The notes beneath the pieces are model-generated. The model searched no databases and was not told the origin of the DNA. It saw nothing but the letters and a program-made list of their open reading frames with translations. A stretch of DNA of 64,000 nt, from the NCBI GenBank assembly GCA_000023405.1, contig CP001643.1:3472001-3536000 (forward strand), written 5' to 3'. Positions within the stretch are counted from its first letter, which is position 1. Each line of letters begins with the position of its first letter. Below are positions 37,992-46,419 of this stretch, in pieces. Origin of the DNA: Brachybacterium faecium DSM 4810. GTDB taxonomy: Bacteria; Actinomycetota; Actinomycetes; Actinomycetales; Dermabacteraceae. Made by a program: the position numbers and the translations under genes.

Positions 37992-39232
37992 CCGCCCCGG
38001 ATCCCTCCCCGCACCGGCTCGGCCGGCGGCATCTGCTGCGCGCCGGGTCCCTCGGAGCGGGAGCGCTCGGCGTCGGCGCCGCCTCCGTGGGCCTGGACCG
38101 CTCGCTGCGCCGCCGCGGCGCGGAGACCGGACCGGCGGGGGACGGGCCCGCCCCGCACGCCGCCGCGGTCATCCCCTTCCACGGCCCGCACCAGGCGGGG
38201 ATCGAGACCCCGGCCCCGGCGGCGGCGACGTTCCTCGGCCTGGACCTGCGCGAGGAGGTGGACCGTGAGGGCGTGCTGCGCCTGCTGCGGCTCCTCACCG
38301 ATGACGCCGCCCGCCTCACCCGCGGCCAGAGCGCCCTGGCGGACACCGAACCGGAGATGGCCGCGGAACCGGCGGCGCTGACGGTGACCGTCGGCTTCGG
38401 GCCCGGGCTGATGGAGCGGGCCGAGCGCGCCGTGCCGGACTGGCTGGCTCCCCTGCCGCCCTTCGGCATCGACCAGCTCGAGGAGCGCTTCACCGGTGGT
38501 GACCTGCTGCTGCAGGTTGCGGCCGAGGATCCGCTCACCGTCTCCCACGCGGCGCGGATGCTGCTCAAGGACGCCCGCGCCTTCACCCGGGTGCGCTGGG
38601 TGCAGCCGGGCTTCCGGCGCTCCCCGGGCACGCAGGCGCCGGGCACCACCATGCGCAACCTCTTCGGGCAACTCGACGGCAGCGCGAACCCGCGCCCGGG
38701 CAGCGACCACTTCGCGAAGGTGGTGTGGATCGACGAGGGCCCGTTCACGGGAGGCACCTCGATGGTGCTCCGTCGGATCCGGATGGACCTCGACGGCTGG
38801 GACGAGGCGGATCGCAGCGCCCGGGAGCAGTCCACCGGCACCCGGATGGACAGCGGTGCCCCGCTCACCGGCGGCACCGAGTTCTCGCCCCCGGATTTCA
38901 CGCAGGTCTCCGCGAACGGGTTCCCGGTGATCGGGGAGTTCTCGCACGTGCGCCGCGCCCGCGGCGTCGACGAGGGCGAGCACCAGGAGATCTTCCGCCG
39001 GCCGTACAACTACGACGAGGCGCCGCCGCCCGGCAGCACGGCGCTCTCCGAGGCCGGGCAGATCTTCGTGTCCTTCCAGGCGGACGTGCTGGGCCAGTTC
39101 GTCCCGATCCAGCAGCGGCTGGACGCGCTGGACCTGCTGAACCAGTGGACCACCCCGATCGGTTCGGCGGTGTTCGCGATCCCTCCCGGCTGCGCCGAGG
39201 GGGAGCATCTCGGGCAGTCCGTGCTCGAGTGA
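37988..39232 (+). CDS. Tat-exported Dyp-type haem peroxidase (EfeB/DyP-A-like)
   Basis: A 414-residue peroxidase. The leader RRHLLRAGSLGAGALGVGAA is a twin-arginine signal. The Dyp fingerprint GQLDGSANPRPGS (GxxDG) and the proximal haem-ligand region EFSHVRRARG are intact, as is TMRNLFG before the motif. The start is the rare codon TTG at 37988, overlapping the PCu(A)C stop as TTGA; no other start gives the complete leader. Exported haem peroxidases of this type can take iron from haem (EfeB) or oxidise dyes and phenolics. Translational coupling to a copper chaperone is uncommon. Confidence 0.92.
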   Translation: MTAPDPSPHRLGRRHLLRAGSLGAGALGVGAASVGLDRSLRRRGAETGPAGDGPAPHAAAVIPFHGPHQAGIETPAPAAATFLGLDLREEVDREGVLRLLRLLTDDAARLTRGQSALADTEPEMAAEPAALTVTVGFGPGLMERAERAVPDWLAPLPPFGIDQLEERFTGGDLLLQVAAEDPLTVSHAARMLLKDARAFTRVRWVQPGFRRSPGTQAPGTTMRNLFGQLDGSANPRPGSDHFAKVVWIDEGPFTGGTSMVLRRIRMDLDGWDEADRSAREQSTGTRMDSGAPLTGGTEFSPPDFTQVSANGFPVIGEFSHVRRARGVDEGEHQEIFRRPYNYDEAPPPGSTALSEAGQIFVSFQADVLGQFVPIQQRLDALDLLNQWTTPIGSAVFAIPPGCAEGEHLGQSVLE

Positions 39233-39380
39233 TCACGGGGCGGGGCCTGGCAACCGGTGGCGAAGCCTCGGCCGGGCCCCGCCCCCCTCGTATGCTGGCC
39301 GGACCGCCCGCGGCGCCGCGTCCCGGCACCGGCTCGACGCCCCGTGAGCACCCACGCACCGACCAGCGCAGGAGACCCCG

Positions 39381-40871
39381 ATGCCCCGATTCCACATCTC
39401 GGCCGAGGACGCCCAGGGACCGCTCGTGGTCGGGGTCGACATCGGCTCGGGCGGCACGCGCGCCGCCGTCTACGACGTCTCCGGCCGGGAGGTGGGGGCG
39501 CTGCACCACAAGGTCTCCCACACCTTCACCGTGGACGACGACGGCACCAGCACCATCGACGCCGATCAGGTCGTCGAGGAGATCCGCACGGCGCTGGCCG
39601 CGGTGCTCACCGCCGGGCCGCTGCCCGGGCAGGTGCGCGCGATCGGGTTCGACACCTTCGCCTCCTCCCTCGTCGCGGTCGATGCCTCCGGCGCGGCGCT
39701 GACCCCGTGCATCACCTACGCCGACACCCGCTGCCAGCCGCAGATCGAGCGCCTCGCCGCGACCCTCGACGTCGACGACCTCCATGAGCGCACCGGCGCG
39801 CGGCTGCATTCCTCGTACACCGCGCCGCGCCTGGCCTGGCTGCGCGAGGAGCACCCCGAGGTGTTCGCGCGCACCGAGCGGTTCATGGCCCTCGGCGAGT
39901 ACGCGGCGCTGAAGCTGCTGGGCACGGCCGCGCTGGGCACCGCCTCGGCCGCCTGGTCCGGCATGATCGACCGCCGCACCGGGCTGTACGAGCCCGAGCT
40001 GCTCGAGGCCGCGGGGGTGGGCGCCTCCGCGATGGGGCCGGCGCTGGATCCCTCCGATGCGCTGCCCGTGGACGGCACCCCGCTCGCGGCCGAGTTCCCG
40101 CAGCTGAAGGACGCCGTGTGGCTGCCGGTGATCGGCGACGGGCTCGCCGCGAACCTCGGCATCGGGGCGCTCGGCTCCGGCACCTGGGGCATCTCCACCG
40201 CGACCTCCGGTGCGATCCGCCAGCTGCTCTCCACGGAGATCCCCACCCTGCCCAGCGGGCTGTGGGCGTACCGCGTCGACCAGCAGCGCACCCTCGTCGG
40301 CTCGGCGATGAGCGACTGCGGCCGGGTGCTCGACTGGTGCCGCACCGAGCTGGCGATGCCGCACGACGTGGGCAAGACGGACACCGCGTCCCTGTTCTCC
40401 GGTCCGCCCTCCGACGGGACCCCGCTGGTGATCCCGTTCTTCTCCGGCGAGCGGGGTACGAAGTGGCGCGGCGACTCCCGGGCCGTGTTCGCGAACGTCG
40501 GCGCCTCCACCACCTGGAAGGACATGCTGCGCGGGGCGATGGAGGGCGTGGCCCTGTCGTTCCTGCGCATCGCCGATCAGATGCGGGAGGCCGGCGGGGA
40601 GCCGGAGCGGATCGTGCTCTCCGGCGGCATGACCGGTGTGGTCCCCGAGTGGCTGCACCTGCTCTCCGATGCGCTCGGGATGCCGATCGACCACGTCGCC
40701 GTCTCCCGCTCCACGATGCGCGGCGCTGCCGTGATGGCCCTCGAGCAGGCCGCGCCGGGTGAGGCCGTCGCCGAGGCGCCGGTGCTGACCCATGTCGAGC
40801 CGGTCGCCGCCCACCAGGACTACTACCGCGAGCGCCTCGAGCGCTTCGAGAAGCTCGCCGACCTGGCCTGA
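39381..40871 (+). CDS. FGGY-family carbohydrate kinase, gluconokinase/xylulokinase-like
   Basis: A 496-residue cytoplasmic sugar kinase. The phosphate-1 region VGVDIGSGGTRAAVYD, AIGFDTFASSLVAVD, the substrate-binding EYAALKLLGTA and the C-terminal adenosine region VLSGGMTGVVPEWLHLLSDA place it in the FGGY family. Gluconate, xylulose or a related sugar acid is most likely. ATG 39381 follows GCAGGAG. With the uxaC-uxuB and LacI genes 1.6 kb away it could belong to uronate or gluconate catabolism, though the genes run in opposite directions. Confidence 0.88.
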   Translation: MPRFHISAEDAQGPLVVGVDIGSGGTRAAVYDVSGREVGALHHKVSHTFTVDDDGTSTIDADQVVEEIRTALAAVLTAGPLPGQVRAIGFDTFASSLVAVDASGAALTPCITYADTRCQPQIERLAATLDVDDLHERTGARLHSSYTAPRLAWLREEHPEVFARTERFMALGEYAALKLLGTAALGTASAAWSGMIDRRTGLYEPELLEAAGVGASAMGPALDPSDALPVDGTPLAAEFPQLKDAVWLPVIGDGLAANLGIGALGSGTWGISTATSGAIRQLLSTEIPTLPSGLWAYRVDQQRTLVGSAMSDCGRVLDWCRTELAMPHDVGKTDTASLFSGPPSDGTPLVIPFFSGERGTKWRGDSRAVFANVGASTTWKDMLRGAMEGVALSFLRIADQMREAGGEPERIVLSGGMTGVVPEWLHLLSDALGMPIDHVAVSRSTMRGAAVMALEQAAPGEAVAEAPVLTHVEPVAAHQDYYRERLERFEKLADLA

Positions 40872-40967
40872 CGCACCCGCGAGCGGGCGCCCCGCCCCCG
40901 CCCCACCCCACCCTCGCCACCCCGCACCTCACCCCCTCACCCCCTCACCCCAGGGGGCTACCGGCCA
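40872..40967. other. C-rich spacer between the sugar kinase gene and the DUF559 unit
   Basis: About 95 bases with almost no G on the plus strand after 40895, including three tandem copies of CTCACCCC. No gene or hairpin recognised; it marks the boundary before the left inverted repeat. Confidence 0.6.
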
Positions 40968-41013
40968 GTTATGTGCAACTGGGAGCCGCGAACGGAACTG
41001 AGCGACACATAAC
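40968..41013 (+). repeat. Left 46-bp inverted terminal repeat of the DUF559 unit
   Basis: This copy starts GTTATGTGCA and matches the reverse complement of 42261-42306 at 32 of 46 positions with no gap. It also has an internal dyad, GTTATGTG (40968-40975) with CACATAAC (41006-41013), so the left repeat can fold on itself. Confidence 0.7.
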
Positions 41014-41066
41014 CCGACGCGGCACGTCGCCGACGAGGGTGCGAGGCTCTGCGAGTGCTGGTCCTC

Positions 41067-41212
41067 GGTCTCGAAGCACGGGACTCACGCCCCGCGCCAC
41101 ACCCCGACCTCGAGACACGCGACTCGCGCACACCGCGCGCCCTGGCCTCAGTACACGGGACTCACGCTCGCCACGCCCCGACCTCAGTAGGCGGGACGCG
41201 CGCGCCGCTTCC
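41067..41212. repeat. Degenerate tandem repeats of 31-40 bp inside the DUF559 unit
   Basis: Four diverged copies start near 41067, 41108, 41146 and 41182. Each contains a variant of CCTCAGTACACGGGACTCAC, followed by a CG-rich part ending CACCCCGA or similar. The array fills most of the 320 bases between the left inverted repeat and the DUF559 start. No coding role is evident. Confidence 0.55.
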
Positions 41213-41333
41213 ACGACCGCTTGGCGTCGCTCCCGATCCGCCACCGCGTCACCTGCCCTCCCCACGCCCCGACCGTCCCCATCCCCGTGCGATGCTCCGT
41301 CGGCTGGGGCGCGCCCCGGTACGGTTCGCGGGC

Positions 41334-42275
41334 ATGGCTCCTCGCTGGTCACCGAATCCCCACAGCCTGCACAGCCGTGCAGAGCTGAGGCAGCGCGGGG
41401 TGCACGCGCGCCGCCTCGCCTCCGACGAGTTCCGGGAAGCGGTGCCTGGATTCTGCACTCCTGCGGCGGCGCCGGCCACGCTCGAGCTCGCGGCGCGCAC
41501 GCTGCAGCGCAAGGTGCTCCCCGGGGCGGTGATCAGCCACGCCTCGGCCGCAGAGCTGCTCGGCATCCCGCTGCCCAGGGAGCACGAGTACTCCGCCTCG
41601 AAAACCGTGCACTGCTCGCTGCCGCACGATCGGCGTCGGCGGCCGGGACGCGGCATCCACGTCCACAACAGCACCGATGCCTCGACGATGCGGCTCCGCG
41701 GAATCGTGGTCAGCGGCCCGGTGCAGCTGTTGTGCGAACTGGCGAAGGACCTGGGGCATGATCAGCTGGTCGCCTGCTGCGACCACCTCGTGGGCCCCGC
41801 CTCCCGCGCCCGGCCCGCACTCTCCCTGGCACGCCTGCGCGCGCTCGTCGCGGACGCGGGCCCGCGCTACCGGATCGCCGCGGTCAGGGCCGCCGTCGCC
41901 GACGCCCGGGAGCGGGTCGAATCGCCGAAGGAGACGCAGACCAGGCTCCTCCTGCGCCGCGCTGGTTTCGCCGAGCCGGAGGTGAACCGCACGCTCCGGG
42001 CGCCGGGGAGCGACGAGACGTTCCGGCTCGACCTGTCCTACCCCGCCCTCCGCGTCGCGATCGAGTACGACGGCATCTGGCACTCCACCGACCGGAGTCG
42101 CCACCGCCGGGATCGGCGGAAGGACGACGTCCTCCATCAGCTCGGCTGGCGCGTGGTGCGCCTCGCGGACTCGGACCTGCTGTCCCCACGACACCTCCTG
42201 GACCGCCTGGTCTCGCTGGGTGCCCCCGGCCAGCCCGGCATCGTCCCCGGTTACCACCGGGTTTTGAACCCGTGA
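41334..42275 (+). CDS. DUF559/Vsr-like endonuclease-domain protein with AbiEi-type N-terminus
   Basis: A 313-residue protein. The N-terminal half resembles proteins annotated as AbiEi-type antitoxin/HTH plus DUF559: SRAELRQRGVHARRL, then VISHASAAELLGIPLP and a middle part with VHNSTDASTMRLRGIVVSGP. The C-terminal 90 residues form a Vsr/PD-(D/E)xK-like nuclease: D233 in FRLDLSYP, E244 and D246 in VAIEYDGIWH, then RKDDVLHQLGWRVVRL. ATG 41334 is eight bases after TACGGT (41320-41325). The last residues are encoded inside the right inverted repeat. Nuclease activity is predicted, not shown. It separates the FGGY kinase from the uronate genes. Confidence 0.8.
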   Translation: MAPRWSPNPHSLHSRAELRQRGVHARRLASDEFREAVPGFCTPAAAPATLELAARTLQRKVLPGAVISHASAAELLGIPLPREHEYSASKTVHCSLPHDRRRRPGRGIHVHNSTDASTMRLRGIVVSGPVQLLCELAKDLGHDQLVACCDHLVGPASRARPALSLARLRALVADAGPRYRIAAVRAAVADARERVESPKETQTRLLLRRAGFAEPEVNRTLRAPGSDETFRLDLSYPALRVAIEYDGIWHSTDRSRHRRDRRKDDVLHQLGWRVVRLADSDLLSPRHLLDRLVSLGAPGQPGIVPGYHRVLNP

Positions 42276-42306
42276 GTGCCGTTGACGGTACCCATCTGCA
42301 CATAAC
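42261..42306 (-). repeat. Right 46-bp inverted terminal repeat of the DUF559 unit
   Basis: Read on the minus strand it begins GTTATGTGCA and aligns with the left repeat at 32 of 46 positions. The first ten bases are identical, and the mismatches are scattered in pairs. It contains the stop codon of the DUF559 gene (42273-42275). Confidence 0.7.
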
Positions 42307-42365
42307 CAGGCAGTAACCGCCTGGGGGTGCGCCTGGGGGTGCGCAGGGAGCCTGGCGACGGGCTC

Positions 42366-42507
42366 CGCGAGCACGGGCGAAGCCGGGAGCTCGCACACGT
42401 TCCGCGAGCACGGGCGAGACCGGGGAGCTCGGGCACGCTCAGGGAACACGAGCGATGCCGGAGAGCACGGGCATGCGCAGGGAGCAGGCGAGCTCCTCGA
42501 GCTCGGG
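42366..42507. repeat. Degenerate 37-39-bp tandem repeats right of the DUF559 unit
   Basis: Three units at 42366-42402, 42403-42441 and 42442-42479, plus a partial fourth, share GCGAGCACGGGCGA and GGAGCTCG cores. The 237-base space between the DUF559 stop and the uxuB stop holds no gene. The GCACGGG/ACACGGG core recalls the array on the left side of the DUF559 gene. Confidence 0.6.
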
Positions 42508-42512
42508 AGCGG

Positions 42513-43784
42513 TCAGGGGCGGGGCAGGCGCTGCTCCTCGGCGAGGACGGCGTCCACGAGGGGGTCGATGGCCGGGACGTCGAGCAGGGCGAGCAGGGAG
42601 CTCACGCGCTCGGTGGTGTCCTCGAGCGAGGCGGCGGCCGCGATCGCCTCGGACTTCGGGTCCTGCACCTCTTCGCCGGCGCGCACGCGGTCGGTGACCC
42701 AGGCGGTCCAGGCCGCGACGGCCGCGACCTCGCCGGGGGCCTGCTCCGGGCCGCCGCGCTCGGCGATCACGGGCAGGGCGCGCACCGGCAGCTTCACCGA
42801 ACCATCGGCCGCGATGCGGATGAGGTTGTCCGCCAGGCGCGGGTTGCGGAACCGCTCCTCGAGGGCGGCGGTGTAGGCGTCGAGCTCGGCGGCCGGCAGC
42901 GGCAGCGTCGCGCGGGCCTCGGCCCACAGCTGCTCCACCAGGGCCCGCACCTCGCGGTGCGCGATCGCCTCGTCCACGCGCTGCACCCCGGCCACCTGCC
43001 CGGCATATGCCATGAGGGTGTGGGCGCCGTTGAGCAGGCGCAGCTTGCGCAGCTCGTGCACCTCGAGGTCGTCGGTGAACTGCACGCCGGCCTTCTCCCA
43101 CTCGGGGCGGCGGCCGCGGAAGCGATCCTCGATGACCCACTCGGTGAAGGGCTCGGTGACCACCGGGACGCTGTCGGCGAGACCGGTCTGGGCGCGCACG
43201 GTCTCCGAGGCGTTCTCGTCGGCCGAGGGGGTGATGCGGTCGACCATGGAGGAGATGACGTCGACGTGGTCCGGGAACCAGGCCTTGGTCTCCTCGTCGA
43301 GCTCGGCGAGCACGGCCTGGCCCAGCACCTCGCCGTTGCCGGTGAGGTTGTCGCAGGAGACCAGGGCGATCGGCTCGGTGACCCCGGCCTCGCGGCGGGC
43401 CTTCAGGCCCAAGGCGATGCGGGCGGGGGCGGAGGTGGCGGGGTCGCTGCCGGCCGCGTAGCCCTTCTCGGTGATGGTCAGGGTGACCACGGCGGTGAAG
43501 GGGTCGGCGAGCAGTCGCACCAGGGTGTCGACGTCGGAGGCGGGGTGCACCTCGTCGATGACGTCGACCAGGCTGACCTCGTCACCCTCCGCGCCGCGCA
43601 CGATCAGGCCGTACCGGCCGCCCTGGGCGTTGAGCGCATCAGCCATCGTGGCCGAGCGGCCGGTGAAGGCCACGACCGACCAGCCGCCGGCCACGTCGGT
43701 GGCGTGCAGGGTGTGGGCGCGGGCGAAGTTGCCGATGCCGAGGTGGACCAGGCGGCCGACGTCGGAGGGGCTGGGGCTGTTCAT
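42513..43784 (-). CDS. uxuB: Mannitol dehydrogenase-family oxidoreductase, probable fructuronate reductase
   Basis: A 423-residue NAD-dependent dehydrogenase of the long-chain mannitol/fructuronate branch. VHLGIGNFARAH is the N-terminal nucleotide-binding motif, LVSCDNLTGNGEVL and the catalytic-lysine region ELRKLRLLNGAHTLMAYAG are intact. With uxaC directly upstream it most likely reduces D-fructuronate or tagaturonate to the aldonate. ATG 43784 shares one base with the uxaC stop (TGATG), and AGGAGAG precedes it. Mannitol dehydrogenase activity is the alternative. Confidence 0.87.
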   Translation of the reverse strand: MNSPSPSDVGRLVHLGIGNFARAHTLHATDVAGGWSVVAFTGRSATMADALNAQGGRYGLIVRGAEGDEVSLVDVIDEVHPASDVDTLVRLLADPFTAVVTLTITEKGYAAGSDPATSAPARIALGLKARREAGVTEPIALVSCDNLTGNGEVLGQAVLAELDEETKAWFPDHVDVISSMVDRITPSADENASETVRAQTGLADSVPVVTEPFTEWVIEDRFRGRRPEWEKAGVQFTDDLEVHELRKLRLLNGAHTLMAYAGQVAGVQRVDEAIAHREVRALVEQLWAEARATLPLPAAELDAYTAALEERFRNPRLADNLIRIAADGSVKLPVRALPVIAERGGPEQAPGEVAAVAAWTAWVTDRVRAGEEVQDPKSEAIAAAASLEDTTERVSSLLALLDVPAIDPLVDAVLAEEQRLPRP

Positions 43785-45226
43785 CAGTTCTTCTCTCCTG
43801 CGGTGTCGAGGCGGAAGACCTCGCGCGGCTGCTGATCGGGCAGGGTGGCCACGAGCTCCTCGGCGTCCTGGAGCCGCATGCGGTGCTCGGCGACCAGGCC
43901 CGCGAGGTGCGTCGCATCGAGGCGGCGGGACATGTCGTGCCGTGCCGGGATCGAGCAGAAGGCGCGGGTGTCGTCGATGAAGCCGCTGGTGCGCGAGTAG
44001 CCGATGGTCTCGGAGACGGCGCGGCGGTAGCGCAGGATCGCGTCCGGCGCGTCGATGAACCACCAGGGCGCTCCGGCGTACACGGAGGGGTACACGCCGG
44101 CCAGCGGGGCGATCTCGCGGGAGAACACGGTCTCGTCGATCGTGAACAGCACGGTGCGGAAGTTCGGCGAGTGGCCCACGTCGTTGAGCATCGGGCGCAG
44201 GTGGTGGACGTAGTCCACGGCGACGGGGATGTCGAAGCCGACGTCGGGCCCGAACTTCTCGAAGACCCAGTCGCTGTGGTTGCGGTGCACGGCGGGGTGG
44301 AGGGTCATGACCAGGCCGTCCTCGGCCGCCAGGCGCGCCTGATCGCCCAGCAGGTGGCGGCGCAGCGCCACGGCCTCGTCGGCCCCGATCGCGCCGTCGC
44401 GCGCGGCGGAGTAGAGGCGGCGGGCGTCCTCGTCGCTCAGGCGTGCGGTGCCGGGATCCATGTGCGCGTGGTCGGAGGAGACCGCGCCGTGGTCGCGGAA
44501 GTACAGGCGGCGGGCGCGCATGGCCTCGTGGTAGCCGTCGTAGGTGCCGGTGTCGATCCCGGCGGCCTCGCCGAGCGCGTCGGCGAGCTCGCGGAAGTCG
44601 GCGCGGCCGGCCTCGAGGTACTTGTCGGGGCGGAAGGTGGGGATCACGCGGCCGGTGAAGGAGTCGTCGGCGGCGAGCGCGGCGTGCGGGGCGAGGTCGT
44701 CGACGGGGTCGTCGGTGGTCGCCATGACGGTGATCTTGAACTGGTCGAACAGCGCGCGGGGGCGGAACTCGGGGCGGGCGAGCTTCTCGGCGATCGCGTC
44801 GTACATCGCGTCGGCGGTGCGCGGGTTCAGCACGGTCTCGAGGCCGAAGACCTCGTGGAACTCGTGCTCCATCCAGTAGCGGGAGGGGGTGCCGGCGTAG
44901 GCGTGCCAGTGCTCGGCCAGCAGGTGCCAGGCCGCGCGGGAGGCGGATTCGTCCAGCGGGCCCTGGCCGACGCCGAGATCGGCGAGGTCCACGCCGCGGG
45001 AGTGCAGCAGGCGGTTGACGTAGTGATCCGGGGTGATGAAGAGCGAGGTCGGGTCGCGGAACGGCTCGTCGTCGAGCAGCAGCCGAGGATCGACGTGGCC
45101 GTGCGGGGAGACGATCGGCTGGTCCTTCTCCAGCTCGTACAGGCCGCGGGCGATGTCGCGGACGGCCGGGTCCGCGGGCAGGAGGCGGTCGGGGTGCGGG
45201 ACGTAGGCGTCGGCGTCGTTGCTCAT
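43784..45226 (-). CDS. uxaC: Glucuronate isomerase
   Basis: A 480-residue cytoplasmic isomerase converting D-glucuronate to D-fructuronate (or galacturonate to tagaturonate). IVSPHGHVDPRLLLDDEPF carries the metal-binding HGH motif of the amidohydrolase-like fold, and HRNHSDWVFEKFGPDVGFDIP and IGYSRTSGFIDDTRAFCSIPARHD are UxaC hallmarks. Length is normal (about 470). First gene of a two-gene operon with uxuB. The start ATG 45226 has a weak GCGAGGA before it. A LacI-type operator candidate is 41-54 bases upstream. Confidence 0.95.
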   Translation of the reverse strand: MSNDADAYVPHPDRLLPADPAVRDIARGLYELEKDQPIVSPHGHVDPRLLLDDEPFRDPTSLFITPDHYVNRLLHSRGVDLADLGVGQGPLDESASRAAWHLLAEHWHAYAGTPSRYWMEHEFHEVFGLETVLNPRTADAMYDAIAEKLARPEFRPRALFDQFKITVMATTDDPVDDLAPHAALAADDSFTGRVIPTFRPDKYLEAGRADFRELADALGEAAGIDTGTYDGYHEAMRARRLYFRDHGAVSSDHAHMDPGTARLSDEDARRLYSAARDGAIGADEAVALRRHLLGDQARLAAEDGLVMTLHPAVHRNHSDWVFEKFGPDVGFDIPVAVDYVHHLRPMLNDVGHSPNFRTVLFTIDETVFSREIAPLAGVYPSVYAGAPWWFIDAPDAILRYRRAVSETIGYSRTSGFIDDTRAFCSIPARHDMSRRLDATHLAGLVAEHRMRLQDAEELVATLPDQQPREVFRLDTAGEKN

Positions 45227-45266
45227 GGCGCCATCCTCGCAAGACGGCCCTGCTCCTGCCCGCCGT

Positions 45267-45280
45267 TGTCATCGGTTGCC
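45267..45280. promoter_or_regulatory. LacI-type operator candidate upstream of uxaC
   Basis: TGTCATCGGTTGCC fits the general LacI-family pattern TGnnAnCGnTnnCA at all fixed positions except the last. It lies 41 bases before the uxaC ATG and downstream of a LacI gene, the expected place for autonomous control of this operon. Single occurrence, so moderate weight. Confidence 0.4.
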
Positions 45281-45325
45281 GGTGCGGCGAGGCCCGGACC
45301 AGCACGGCGAGGTCGAGGAGCGGGG

Positions 45326-45381
45326 TCGGCGCACGGTCCGACGGGCGGACTCAGCGGGCGGCGTCGGCGCACGGTCCGACG
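45326..45381. repeat. Two copies of a 19-bp repeat between uxaC and the LacI gene
   Basis: GTCGGCGCACGGTCCGACG occurs at 45326-45344 and 45363-45381, within a longer stretch of GCGG/GTCAGC repeats. The unit contains the dyad GTCGG...CCGAC, so transcripts could form small hairpins between the two genes. Confidence 0.55.
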
Positions 45382-45414
45382 AGCGGGGTCAGCAGGCAGG
45401 GTCAGCCGACGGCG

Positions 45415-46419
45415 TCAGCGGGCGGCGTCGCGCGGGCCGGTCGTGCCGCGGGGCACGAGCCGCACCGGCAGGGAGCCCTCGACCGGGGTGCGGTGTGCGG
45501 AGGGGTTCTCGATCCGCCGCACGAGCCGTTCGATCGCGGCGCGGCCCTGGGCCCGCTTGGGGGTGACGACGGTGGTGAGCCCTCCGCCGACGAGCCGCGA
45601 GAGGTGGATGTCATCGTGCCCCATCACGGACAGCTCCCCGGGCACCCGGATCCCGGCGCGCAGCGCGGAGACCAGGAATCCGAAGGCGACGAGGTCGTTG
45701 TAGCAGACCACCGAGTGCGGGAGGGAGTCGCGCAGCTCCTCGAAGGCCTGCTCGCCGCCCGTGGTGGTGGGGGCGAAGGGACCGTGGCGCTGGATCTGCA
45801 GGCCGTGCTGCCGGGCGGCGACGCGGGCCGCGCGCCAGCGCTCCCCGTCGGACCACGAGTTCACCGGGCCGGCCACGTAGGTGACGGTGCGGATCCCGTT
45901 CTCCACCAGATGCGCCATCGCCTGGCCCATCCCGTGCTCGAAGTCAGGGGTGACCGAGTCGAGCCCGGCGACCCGACGGTTCAGCACGACCAGCGGTATG
46001 CGCTTGGTGAGGTGGTTGAGCGTCGCGTCGGAGAGGCGGGAGCCGGAGAGCACGATCCCGTCGACCACGTTGATGGCGCTCTCGAGGCTCGAGCGTTCGC
46101 GCACCTCGTCCTCGACGGTGTCGAGCAGGAGCAGCAGGAGGTCCTGCTCGTGGGCGGCCTCCTGCATGCCGGAGACGAGCTCGGCGAAGTAGGGGTTGGT
46201 GAGGTCGGGGACCTCGATGCCGAGGCGGTGGTGGCGCTCGGGACGCTCCTGCACGGCCGGGGAGGAGGTGCGGTAGTCGAGCTGTTTCGCGGCGGCCATC
46301 ACGGTGGCGTGGGTGGCGGCGCTGACGCGTCCGGGGCGGGAGAAGGCGCGGGAGACGGTCGAGGGGGCGACGCCCGCGAGCTCGGCGACGTCGTAGATCG
46401 TCACTCGCTTCTCGGCCAT
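45415..46419 (-). CDS. LacI-family regulator, probable uronate regulator
   Basis: A 334-residue protein. VTIYDVAELAGVAPSTVSRA is the N-terminal helix-turn-helix (about residues 6-25), followed by the hinge RVSAATHATVMAAAKQLDYR. The effector domain has IPLVVLNRRVAGLDSVTPDF and VMGHDDIHLSRLVGGGLTTV. ATG 46419 (MAEKRV) gives the standard length. It is upstream of uxaC-uxuB on the same strand with a 188-base gap containing repeats, so it may have its own transcript. Glucuronate or fructuronate as inducer is inferred from context. Confidence 0.9.
   Translation of the reverse strand: MAEKRVTIYDVAELAGVAPSTVSRAFSRPGRVSAATHATVMAAAKQLDYRTSSPAVQERPERHHRLGIEVPDLTNPYFAELVSGMQEAAHEQDLLLLLLDTVEDEVRERSSLESAINVVDGIVLSGSRLSDATLNHLTKRIPLVVLNRRVAGLDSVTPDFEHGMGQAMAHLVENGIRTVTYVAGPVNSWSDGERWRAARVAARQHGLQIQRHGPFAPTTTGGEQAFEELRDSLPHSVVCYNDLVAFGFLVSALRAGIRVPGELSVMGHDDIHLSRLVGGGLTTVVTPKRAQGRAAIERLVRRIENPSAHRTPVEGSLPVRLVPRGTTGPRDAAR

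What the first reader, a model, noticed from the sequence alone, without database searches (positions are those of the whole stretch)
40968..42306. Single-gene unit: DUF559 nuclease-like gene bounded by 46-bp inverted repeats
Positions 40968-41013 and the reverse complement of 42261-42306 align without gaps at 32 of 46 positions, starting with the identical GTTATGTGCA. The only gene between them encodes an AbiEi/DUF559 Vsr-like endonuclease whose stop codon lies inside the right repeat. The unit separates an FGGY kinase from the uxaC-uxuB-LacI uronate genes, as an insertion would. No transposase is present and I see no clear target duplication. A self-contained, nuclease-only mobile or homing-like unit, or a nuclease gene flanked by its own recognition sites, would both explain it. 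DUF559 and Vsr relatedness is established knowledge; mobility is inference.
Basis: partly seen in the sequence, partly recalled or inferred. Interest (0 to 1): 0.75.

Follow-up and report, generated by a model that had tools for sequence, protein, structure and literature searches.

The report
Nuclease gene bracketed by matching palindromes
A bacterial gene for a DNA-cutting type of protein sits between two copies of a DNA palindrome that also lies scattered elsewhere in the same genome, and related genes in other bacteria often have their own, different matching palindromes, which suggests a nuclease that works on, and perhaps spreads, its own sites.

Summary
The repeats are real, but each 46-bp arm is itself a palindrome (about 70 bp with outer arms). 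Of nine found in this Brachybacterium chromosome, two bracket the DUF559 gene and seven stand alone. The gene encodes an AbiEi-like part plus a Vsr/I-Bth0305I-type nuclease domain. The arrangement recurs: the 9 fetched full-length homologs of 53% identity or more have such palindromes on both sides. Many distant homologs carry other palindromes, and the two at one gene match each other (permutations 0/5000, in two sets). In another genus at least 17 cognate palindromes with covarying arms lie in one genome, 2 beside the nuclease gene. Palindrome type follows the nuclease rather than the flanking genes, and nuclease and flanking-gene trees reject each other although the gene mostly keeps one slot. 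No Y1/RAYT transposase was found in 12 genomes. Best reading: a REP/RAYT-like partnership built on an unrelated, Vsr-like endonuclease, exchanged between species in homing-like fashion. Binding, cutting and copying are inferred. Against it: members with a ruined active site keep matched palindromes; 24 of 40 distant loci show no matched pair; no insertion boundary was resolved; at one site relatives carry ordinary hairpins in the same gap, so a terminator role stays open.

The parts
40956..41025 (.). left palindromic element (core 40968-41013, outer arms about 12 bp each side)
   Evidence: covariance model R1 match, 59.7 bits (it is part of the training set A1); core verified
41334..42275 (+). 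nuclease gene, 313 aa: AbiEi-like N-terminal part (about residues 1-192) and Vsr/I-Bth0305I-type nuclease domain (about residues 194-298)
   Evidence: Pfam DUF559 20.8 bits (cut-off 20.6) and MTES_1575 29.9 bits, below its cut-off 38.2 (on the longer ORF); weak Vsr and AbiEi model matches; AlphaFold model mean pLDDT 85; VIA-align Z 10.0 to 3r3p, 8.7 to Vsr 1cw0, 8.4 to AbiEi 6y8q
42249..42318 (.). right palindromic element (core 42261-42306); its left arm encodes the last 8 residues and the stop codon of the nuclease
   Evidence: R1 match, 65.6 bits (part of the training set); close homologs are 300-307 aa long
39381..40871 (+). FGGY carbohydrate kinase, left neighbour (not part of the unit)
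   Evidence: Pfam FGGY_N and FGGY_C
   Evidence: gene call; matches in 36 of 38 genus genomes
   Evidence: gene call; found next to uxuB in 29 of the 30 uxuB loci (not in L254)

Best explanation
The unit is a palindrome-bracketed nuclease: one gene for a two-part protein (AbiEi-like part plus Vsr/EDxHD-type endonuclease) between two copies of a 46-70 bp palindrome, with further solo copies between other genes. Most likely the protein recognises its own palindrome (through the N-terminal part, as a hairpin/cruciform or as two half-sites), nicks or cuts it, and repair copies the palindrome. Inside one genome this would spread and homogenise the palindromes; between related chromosomes it would replace the whole palindrome-nuclease-palindrome unit at its resident slot, as homing does. 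Shown here: the architecture, the matching of palindromes to each nuclease, the dispersed copies, arm covariation, presence/absence of solo copies between relatives, and conflicting trees of nuclease and flanking genes at one slot. Inferred: binding, cutting, repair-driven copying.
For: The 9 fetched full-length genus homologs of 53% identity or more have R1 palindromes on both sides (E 0.007 or better; genes; 4 of these elements trained the model). De novo palindromes on both sides at 19 of 64 homolog loci vs 2 of 59 control genes; upstream 37 of 64 vs 8 of 59. Up/down palindromes of one locus match: mean 36.1 vs 9.9 permuted, 0 of 5000, own partner best in 18 of 19. In 40 further loci of other genera: 11 with both, own 35.5 vs 10.5 permuted, 0 of 5000, own partner best in 9 of 11; 16 of 40 pairs score 20 or more. 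Solo copies: 7 of 9 elements in G000; 15 of 17 palindromes read in G108; G041 and G059 have 27 and 14 half-sites vs 4 and 3 reversed controls. Arm covariation in G108: 27 double-changed cells vs 6.7 shuffled. Palindrome similarity follows the nuclease (rho 0.39, Mantel p 0.017), not the flanking genes (rho -0.16, p 0.81), 8 loci. Nuclease and flanking-gene data reject each other's clades (p-AU below 0.001 in all 4 tests). One orthologous site: element in G000, G026, G004; none in G027, G009, G021, G013. No Y1 transposase match in 12 of 12 genomes. Nuclease fold: Z 10.0 to a homing endonuclease domain.
Against: Two homologs (L150, L154; 60% identical to each other) have lost the equivalents of E200, E244, D246 and H250 (D233 kept), yet keep matched palindromes, so cutting by the resident protein is not always needed. 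17 of 40 distant loci show no palindrome above threshold on either side and 24 of 40 no matched pair. R1 elements persist in genomes without a close nuclease (G002, G003, G004). At the site above, the four genomes without the element carry GC-rich hairpins in the same gap, as if the element stood in for a terminator. Nothing shows recent hopping: the gaps examined are too diverged to read a boundary or duplication, and the close homologs, G033 apart, sit at one slot. The window pair folds poorly as a hairpin (z -2.35 and -1.43). Only Y1 transposases were searched for; other transposase families were not. Nuclease-tree supports are mostly moderate.
Confidence: 0.48

Rival explanations
1. DNA-binding only: the AbiEi-like part binds the palindromes as operators (autoregulation at the gene, regulation or chromosome organisation at the solo sites), and the nuclease domain has another job or is vestigial in some clades.
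For: The N-terminal part resembles AbiEi antitoxin (Z 8.4, but rmsd 7.7 over 173 residues) and Rv2827c (Z 6.5), recalled as DNA-binding regulators; members without most active-site residues keep matched palindromes; dyad symmetry suits a dimer.
Against: Both ends of the gene carry a copy, not only the promoter side; solo copies sit mostly between convergent genes (26 of 38 solo R1 elements, none divergent, counted), an unlikely place for operators; it does not explain dispersal or concerted change.
Confidence: 0.2
2. Transcription terminators or insulators: the palindromes are bidirectional terminators kept at gene ends and homogenised by ordinary gene conversion; the nuclease gene is merely insulated on both sides.
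For: Preference for convergent and tandem gaps (51 R1 elements: 33 convergent, 17 tandem, 1 contig edge; G108: 9 convergent, 5 tandem, 2 divergent, 1 edge of 17). At one orthologous convergent gap the four genomes without the R1 element have GC-rich hairpins instead.
Against: The terminator scan of 40700-42700 finds no stem with a T run in either palindrome, only two short stems beside the left one; 2 of 17 G108 copies lie between divergent genes; at a second orthologous gap 5 of 6 relatives have no palindrome at all; conserved arm sequence at fixed spacing; subfamily-specific sequences; control genes rarely have palindromes on both sides (2 of 59).
Confidence: 0.17
3. Defence or selfish addiction nuclease: the protein attacks foreign or competing DNA and the palindromes serve as sensor or protected marker sites.
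For: PADLOC AbiEi, Hhe and mREase models match the family weakly; a DUF559/Vsr-like protein of Caulobacter is tied to an SOS response (PMC12907096, listing abstract and one passage seen).
Against: No methyltransferase or toxin partner gene between the flanking FGGY and uxuB genes; the window protein matches 1 plasmid record and no phage record; it does not explain matching flanking sites.
Confidence: 0.08
4. Chance or neutral relic: an ordinary gene with diverged repeats inherited at one locus.
For: The close homologs, G033 apart, stay at one slot.
Against: Recurrence in many genera with different matched sequences; conflicting trees.
Confidence: 0.02

Closest known systems
REP sequences and REP-associated tyrosine transposases (RAYT; 'REPtrons', 'TIRtrons')
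   Same: gene flanked by two copies of a palindromic repeat, solo copies dispersed between genes, arms keep complementarity (PMC2817692 and PMC3733652, passages seen)
   Different: the enzyme is an AbiEi-like plus Vsr-type nuclease, not a Y1 HUH transposase; no Y1 match in 12 genomes; low copy number (9 found in G000, at least 17 in G108)
EDxHD homing endonucleases (I-Bth0305I)
   Same: catalytic domain fold (Z 10.0); gene apparently exchanged between species at one chromosomal slot
   Different: the gene stands free between two other genes, not inside one; bracketed by palindromes; solo palindromes elsewhere; AbiEi-like N-terminal part
Vsr very short patch repair endonuclease and DUF559 proteins
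   Same: C-terminal fold (Z 8.7, 28% identity to 1cw0) and weak profile matches
   Different: extra N-terminal part; no methyltransferase gene between the flanking genes; flanking palindromes
AbiEi antitoxins / Rv2827c
   Same: N-terminal two thirds resemble them
   Different: fused to a nuclease domain; the neighbours are FGGY and uxuB genes, not an AbiEii toxin
MITEs
   Same: short dispersed symmetric repeats of common sequence
   Different: no parent transposon identified (only Y1 transposases were searched for); no target duplication seen

Membership tests
REP/RAYT | enzyme with Pfam01797 Y1 HUH transposase domain | tested here: not met
   0 of 12 genomes match PF01797 at E 0.001; the control rings in 5 of 14 known genomes
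REP/RAYT | gene flanked on both sides by the palindromic repeat | tested here: met
   9 of 9 fetched full-length close homologs; 19 of 64 loci de novo vs 2 of 59 controls
REP/RAYT | solo repeats dispersed in intergenic regions of the same genome | tested here: met
   7 solo of 9 in G000; 15 of 17 read in G108
REP/RAYT | usually high copy number (over 100 per genome; PMC2817692 abstract as seen in the listing) | tested here: not met
   9 in G000 and at least 17 in G108
REP/RAYT | enzyme cleaves the single-stranded repeat | not testable with these tools
   needs purified protein
EDxHD homing endonuclease | Vsr-like catalytic domain with conserved E, D, H, D | tested here: met
   Z 10.0 to 3r3p; near-invariant E200, D233, H250, D260 in 28 rows; that these are the residues of the named motif is inferred
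EDxHD homing endonuclease | cuts an allele lacking the gene so that the gene is copied there | tested here: inconclusive
   conflicting trees at one slot and an empty slot in G027; no cutting or copying observed
DUF559 | Pfam score over the curated cut-off | tested here: met
   20.8 bits vs 20.6
MTES_1575 | Pfam score over the curated cut-off | tested here: not met
   29.9 bits vs 38.2
MITE / classical transposon | target site duplication and sharp insertion boundary | tested here: inconclusive
   copies in G108 share sequence only within the palindrome; no duplication could be read; orthologous gaps too diverged
Type IV toxin-antitoxin AbiE | adjacent AbiEii toxin gene | tested here: not met
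   neighbours are FGGY and uxuB-like genes

The most novel reading that the evidence does not exclude
A widespread actinobacterial class of selfish nucleases, unrelated to any transposase, that recognise, cut and thereby propagate and homogenise their own palindromes, each subfamily with its own palindrome sequence: a REP-like system invented independently around a Vsr-type enzyme, and a function for many AbiEi-like/DUF559 proteins.
Probability: 0.38. Interest if true: 0.9.

Novelty: new variant of a known kind. Interest (0 to 1): 0.8.

Why it matters
A profile of these AbiEi-like/DUF559 proteins finds a member in 138 of 198 genomes sampled from this order, and I found no paper that gives this family a function (searches listed under Tried and rejected). 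Finding that many of them carry a private, matching pair of palindromes turns an unknown nuclease family into a testable enzyme-site system, offers a source for dispersed palindromes in genomes where no RAYT was found, and supplies many natural enzyme-target pairs for learning how such proteins read long palindromic sites.

Tried and rejected
Ordinary terminal inverted repeats of a transposon: rejected, each arm is a palindrome, also a direct repeat, with solo copies. A RAYT elsewhere driving the repeats: no Y1 match in 12 genomes; other transposase families were not searched. Known structured RNA: no Rfam match at gathering score in 38000-46000. Arm symmetry with and without the nuclease: considered, not run, since the structure-based model would bias it. 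The plain flank comparison (44 loci, 75 control genes) was a weaker test; two of its loci (L130, L147, contig ends) gave false scores of 500 that entered its p value and were dropped from then on. A gene of G029 split over two contig ends is not among the 9 close homologs; its two pieces have weak R1 matches nearby. One search left out L222, a genus locus. The control (far stretches) is mostly coding sequence. In one search only 1 control gene fitted, so that call rests on the permutation test. Foldseek against PDB gave no match under E 0.001; fold statements rest on VIA-align, where two mitoribosomal proteins also score Z 9.1 and 8.9. Insertion boundaries: tried at one G000 site, unreadable. 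The scan with A3 failed for lack of conserved stretches; the narrower A4 scan found 34 loci, 22 of which (L169-L190) went into, one (L189) without a hit; the 7 Corallococcus loci, Citreicoccus, Pseudonocardia and one Bifidobacterium (L184) among them show no nearby palindrome. Two hits at contig ends (G092 C19, G169 C67) were not fetched. Genes in fetched stretches were called by my own codon-composition script; it misses genes, for instance the nucleases in L054 and L089, and puts the L054 FGGY gene on the wrong strand, so classes there are approximate. Literature: ten searches listed no paper that links DUF559/Vsr-like nucleases to flanking or dispersed palindromes; the library holds open-licence PMC papers only and listings were capped. 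Papers: passages of PMC3733652, PMC12306157, PMC2817692, PMC3710099 and PMC12907096 seen; others only in listings.

Full report
What is there. The window lies at 3,472,001-3,536,000 of a 3.61-Mb single-contig genome. Its genus is Brachybacterium, judged from named records: contig lengths and positions of B. alimentarium NZ_NRGS01000011 and B. squillarum NZ_AGBX01000001 agree with handles G001 and G033 of the same genus. Each arm is also a palindrome of the form GTTATGTGC..GAGTGCC-N5-GGCACT..GCACATAAC, and a weaker outer arm of the type GGTnACC extends it to about 70 bp. The 8-mer GTTATGTG occurs 13 times in the genome against 2 for the reversed control, and 4 inverted pairs span exactly 46 bp. 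A covariance model (R1) from 10 copies (8 of this genome, 1 each from G001 and G026) gives 18 matches, that is 9 elements on both strands, in this genome, one of them (85859) new to the model, and matches in 28 of 38 genomes of the genus. Two of the nine bracket the DUF559 gene; seven stand alone.

The gene. The conserved reading frame is 41334-42275, 313 aa. Residues about 1-192 resemble AbiEi antitoxin (Z 8.4, rmsd 7.7 over 173 residues) and Rv2827c (Z 6.5). Residues about 194-298 resemble the catalytic domain of homing endonuclease I-Bth0305I (Z 10.0) and Vsr (Z 8.7, 28% identity); two mitoribosomal proteins also score 9.1 and 8.9 (on a model with mean pLDDT 85). Sequence models agree: DUF559 just over its cut-off, MTES_1575 below its own, Vsr and AbiEi weakly. 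Near-invariant residues of 28 family members include E200, D233, E244, D246, H250, D260 and K263. The last 8 residues and the stop codon are written in the right palindrome; close homologs are 300-307 aa long.

It is not peculiar to this genome. Of 38 genus genomes, 36 hold a homolog at E 1e-15 or better. I fetched 46 homolog loci. The 9 full-length ones with 53% identity or more have R1 palindromes on both sides (E 0.007 or better); 4 of these elements (both of the window, one of G001, one of G026) trained the model. Below that identity R1 rarely matches, but a search for palindromes of any sequence shows many with other letters: 41 above score 14 within 700 bp of the 46 genes (about 69 kb) against 9 in 238 kb farther away, which is mostly coding. 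A stricter test used 64 loci (44 of the genus after dropping two at contig ends, 20 of other genera): palindromes at score 11 or more on both sides at 19 of 64 against 2 of 59 control genes; upstream 37 of 64 against 8 of 59; downstream 29 of 64 against 7 of 59.

The two palindromes of a gene match each other. In those 19 loci the similarity of the upstream to the downstream palindrome averages 36.1, against 9.9 (sd 1.7) when partners are permuted, 0 of 5000 permutations reaching it, and the own partner is the best match in 18 of 19. Forty further loci from other genera (the next 42 listed non-genus hits, less two at contig ends) gave 11 with both palindromes, own mean 35.5 against 10.5 (sd 3.2), 0 of 5000, own partner best in 9 of 11, and a pair scoring 20 or more in 16 of 40; 23 of 40 had a palindrome on at least one side and 17 had none. 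Between loci the similarity falls quickly: of pairs with at least 55% protein identity 7 of 20 reach 20, below 50% only 1 of 225 (28 proteins). So palindromes change fast, but the two at one gene change together. Named actinobacteria of other families show nearby palindromes too (Micromonospora, some Bifidobacterium, Tomitella, Modestobacter), others none.

Solo copies belong to the local nuclease. In G108, of another family, the half-site of its nuclease gene occurs 37 times against 1 in the reversed control. In the 30 stretches fetched, 17 palindromes of 60-61 bp could be read, 2 beside the nuclease gene and 15 elsewhere, with unrelated sequence outside GTTGTGGGC...GCCCACAAC; at least one more listed pair was not fetched. 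Their arms covary: 10 of 27 pairs with changes on both sides, 27 such cells against 6.7 shuffled, 97.2% of cells paired against 91.0% shuffled and at most 45.8% when slid. G041 and G059 give 27 and 14 half-sites against 4 and 3 in the control. In G009 the palindrome of a second nuclease (L071) recurs in two other fetched stretches of that genome. In G000 a second DUF559 gene (L152) has a different palindrome pair.

Where they sit. Of 51 R1 elements in fetched stretches, 33 lie between convergent and 17 between tandem genes, 1 at a contig edge, none in divergent gaps or genes; without the 13 beside nuclease genes it is 26, 11 and 1 of 38 (own gene caller). Among gaps of 30-600 bp in the same stretches 55 of 243 are convergent. 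In G108 the split is 9 convergent, 5 tandem, 2 divergent and 1 edge; the two divergent cases look sound from the called proteins. This is REP-like avoidance of promoters and genes; the divergent cases argue against a pure terminator role.

Movement. At one G000 solo site (2141472) the element is also present in G026 and G004 and absent in G027, G009, G021 and G013; those four carry GC-rich hairpins of other sequence in the gap, so the element may have taken the place of, or act as, a terminator. At another site (2800090) only G000 has it; G009, G026, G004, G021 and G013 have no palindrome there (best scores 4.6-5.5), and G027 holds several palindromes of another family. At the FGGY-uxuB slot the gene, or a part of it, is present in G000, G001, G008, G009, G014, G016, G021, G026 and G029; G014 has an internal stop; G033 has the gene elsewhere. 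Among slots without it, G027, whose uxuB is the closest to the window's (95%), has FGGY and uxuB about 50 bp apart, and G023 has a single R1 palindrome. The nuclease tree joins G000, G001 and G026 (100/99); the uxuB-uxaC tree joins G001 with G008 (94/96) and G000 with G026, G009 and G021 (100/99). Clades taken from each tree were tested on the other data: all four were rejected (p-AU 4e-6 and 1e-4 on the nuclease, 4e-57 and 4e-4 on the flanking genes). Nuclease and flank identities do not correlate (rho -0.22 without G033). Palindrome identity follows the nuclease (rho 0.39, Mantel p 0.017) and not the flanking genes (rho -0.16, p 0.81), 8 loci. So nuclease and palindromes seem to travel together between species while the slot stays. 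Homing, or repeated allelic replacement, would give this; ancient coexisting alleles with loss are not excluded.

Mechanism. No Y1 transposase match was found in the 12 genomes searched, so the bracketing nuclease is the natural candidate for the enzyme that acts on the palindromes. A Vsr-type domain nicks or cuts DNA (recalled for Vsr and I-Bth0305I), and an AbiEi-like part can bind DNA (recalled). I therefore propose recognition, nicking or cutting, and repair-driven copying. The main facts against are the members with a ruined active site that still keep matched palindromes (L150, L154), R1 elements in genomes without a close nuclease, the hairpins, and the absence of any observed insertion event. 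Binding-only and terminator readings remain open.

Known systems. The plan is that of REP and RAYT (gene flanked by two palindromic repeats, dispersed repeats, preserved complementarity; PMC2817692, PMC3733652, passages), but the defining enzyme was tested and not found, and copy numbers are low, so it is not filed as a member. The fold is that of EDxHD homing enzymes. Ten literature searches listed no report of the link.

Noticed in passing
window 41095-41203 and 42348-42518: Degenerate tandem repeats of about 36-38 bp lie between the left palindrome and the gene and just outside the right palindrome; local repeats also flank solo elements of the same genome (L076, L078, L079, by eye).
   Followed up: no
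L150 (G016) and L154 (G006): Two homologs, 60% identical to each other, lost most of the conserved active-site positions but keep matched flanking palindromes of nearly the same sequence.
   Followed up: partly
L347 (G027:C1:2798300-2799400): Several palindromes of another family (AAGGTGCCA-n-TGGCACCTT type) in an intergenic gap whose G000 counterpart holds one R1 palindrome.
   Followed up: partly
L244 (G023) between FGGY and uxuB: The slot without nuclease gene holds an R1 palindrome and a second, different palindrome (by eye).
   Followed up: no
L176 (Micromonospora endolithica): Four similar palindromes at roughly regular spacing (47, 206, 376, 528 bp) downstream of the DUF559 gene.
   Followed up: no
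L170, L178 (Bifidobacterium tissieri, B. moraviense): Composite palindromes around the DUF559 gene share an inner stretch like AACGTTGAAATT / AACGTTGCAATT although their outer arms differ.
   Followed up: no
window 42249-42275; L127 4747-4758: The right palindrome overlaps the nuclease gene's 3' end and encodes extra C-terminal residues in the window; a short overlap is also seen in L127.
   Followed up: partly
L353, L354, L355, L356 (gaps orthologous to G000:2141472): Relatives without the R1 element carry GC-rich hairpins of unrelated sequence in the same convergent gap.
   Followed up: partly
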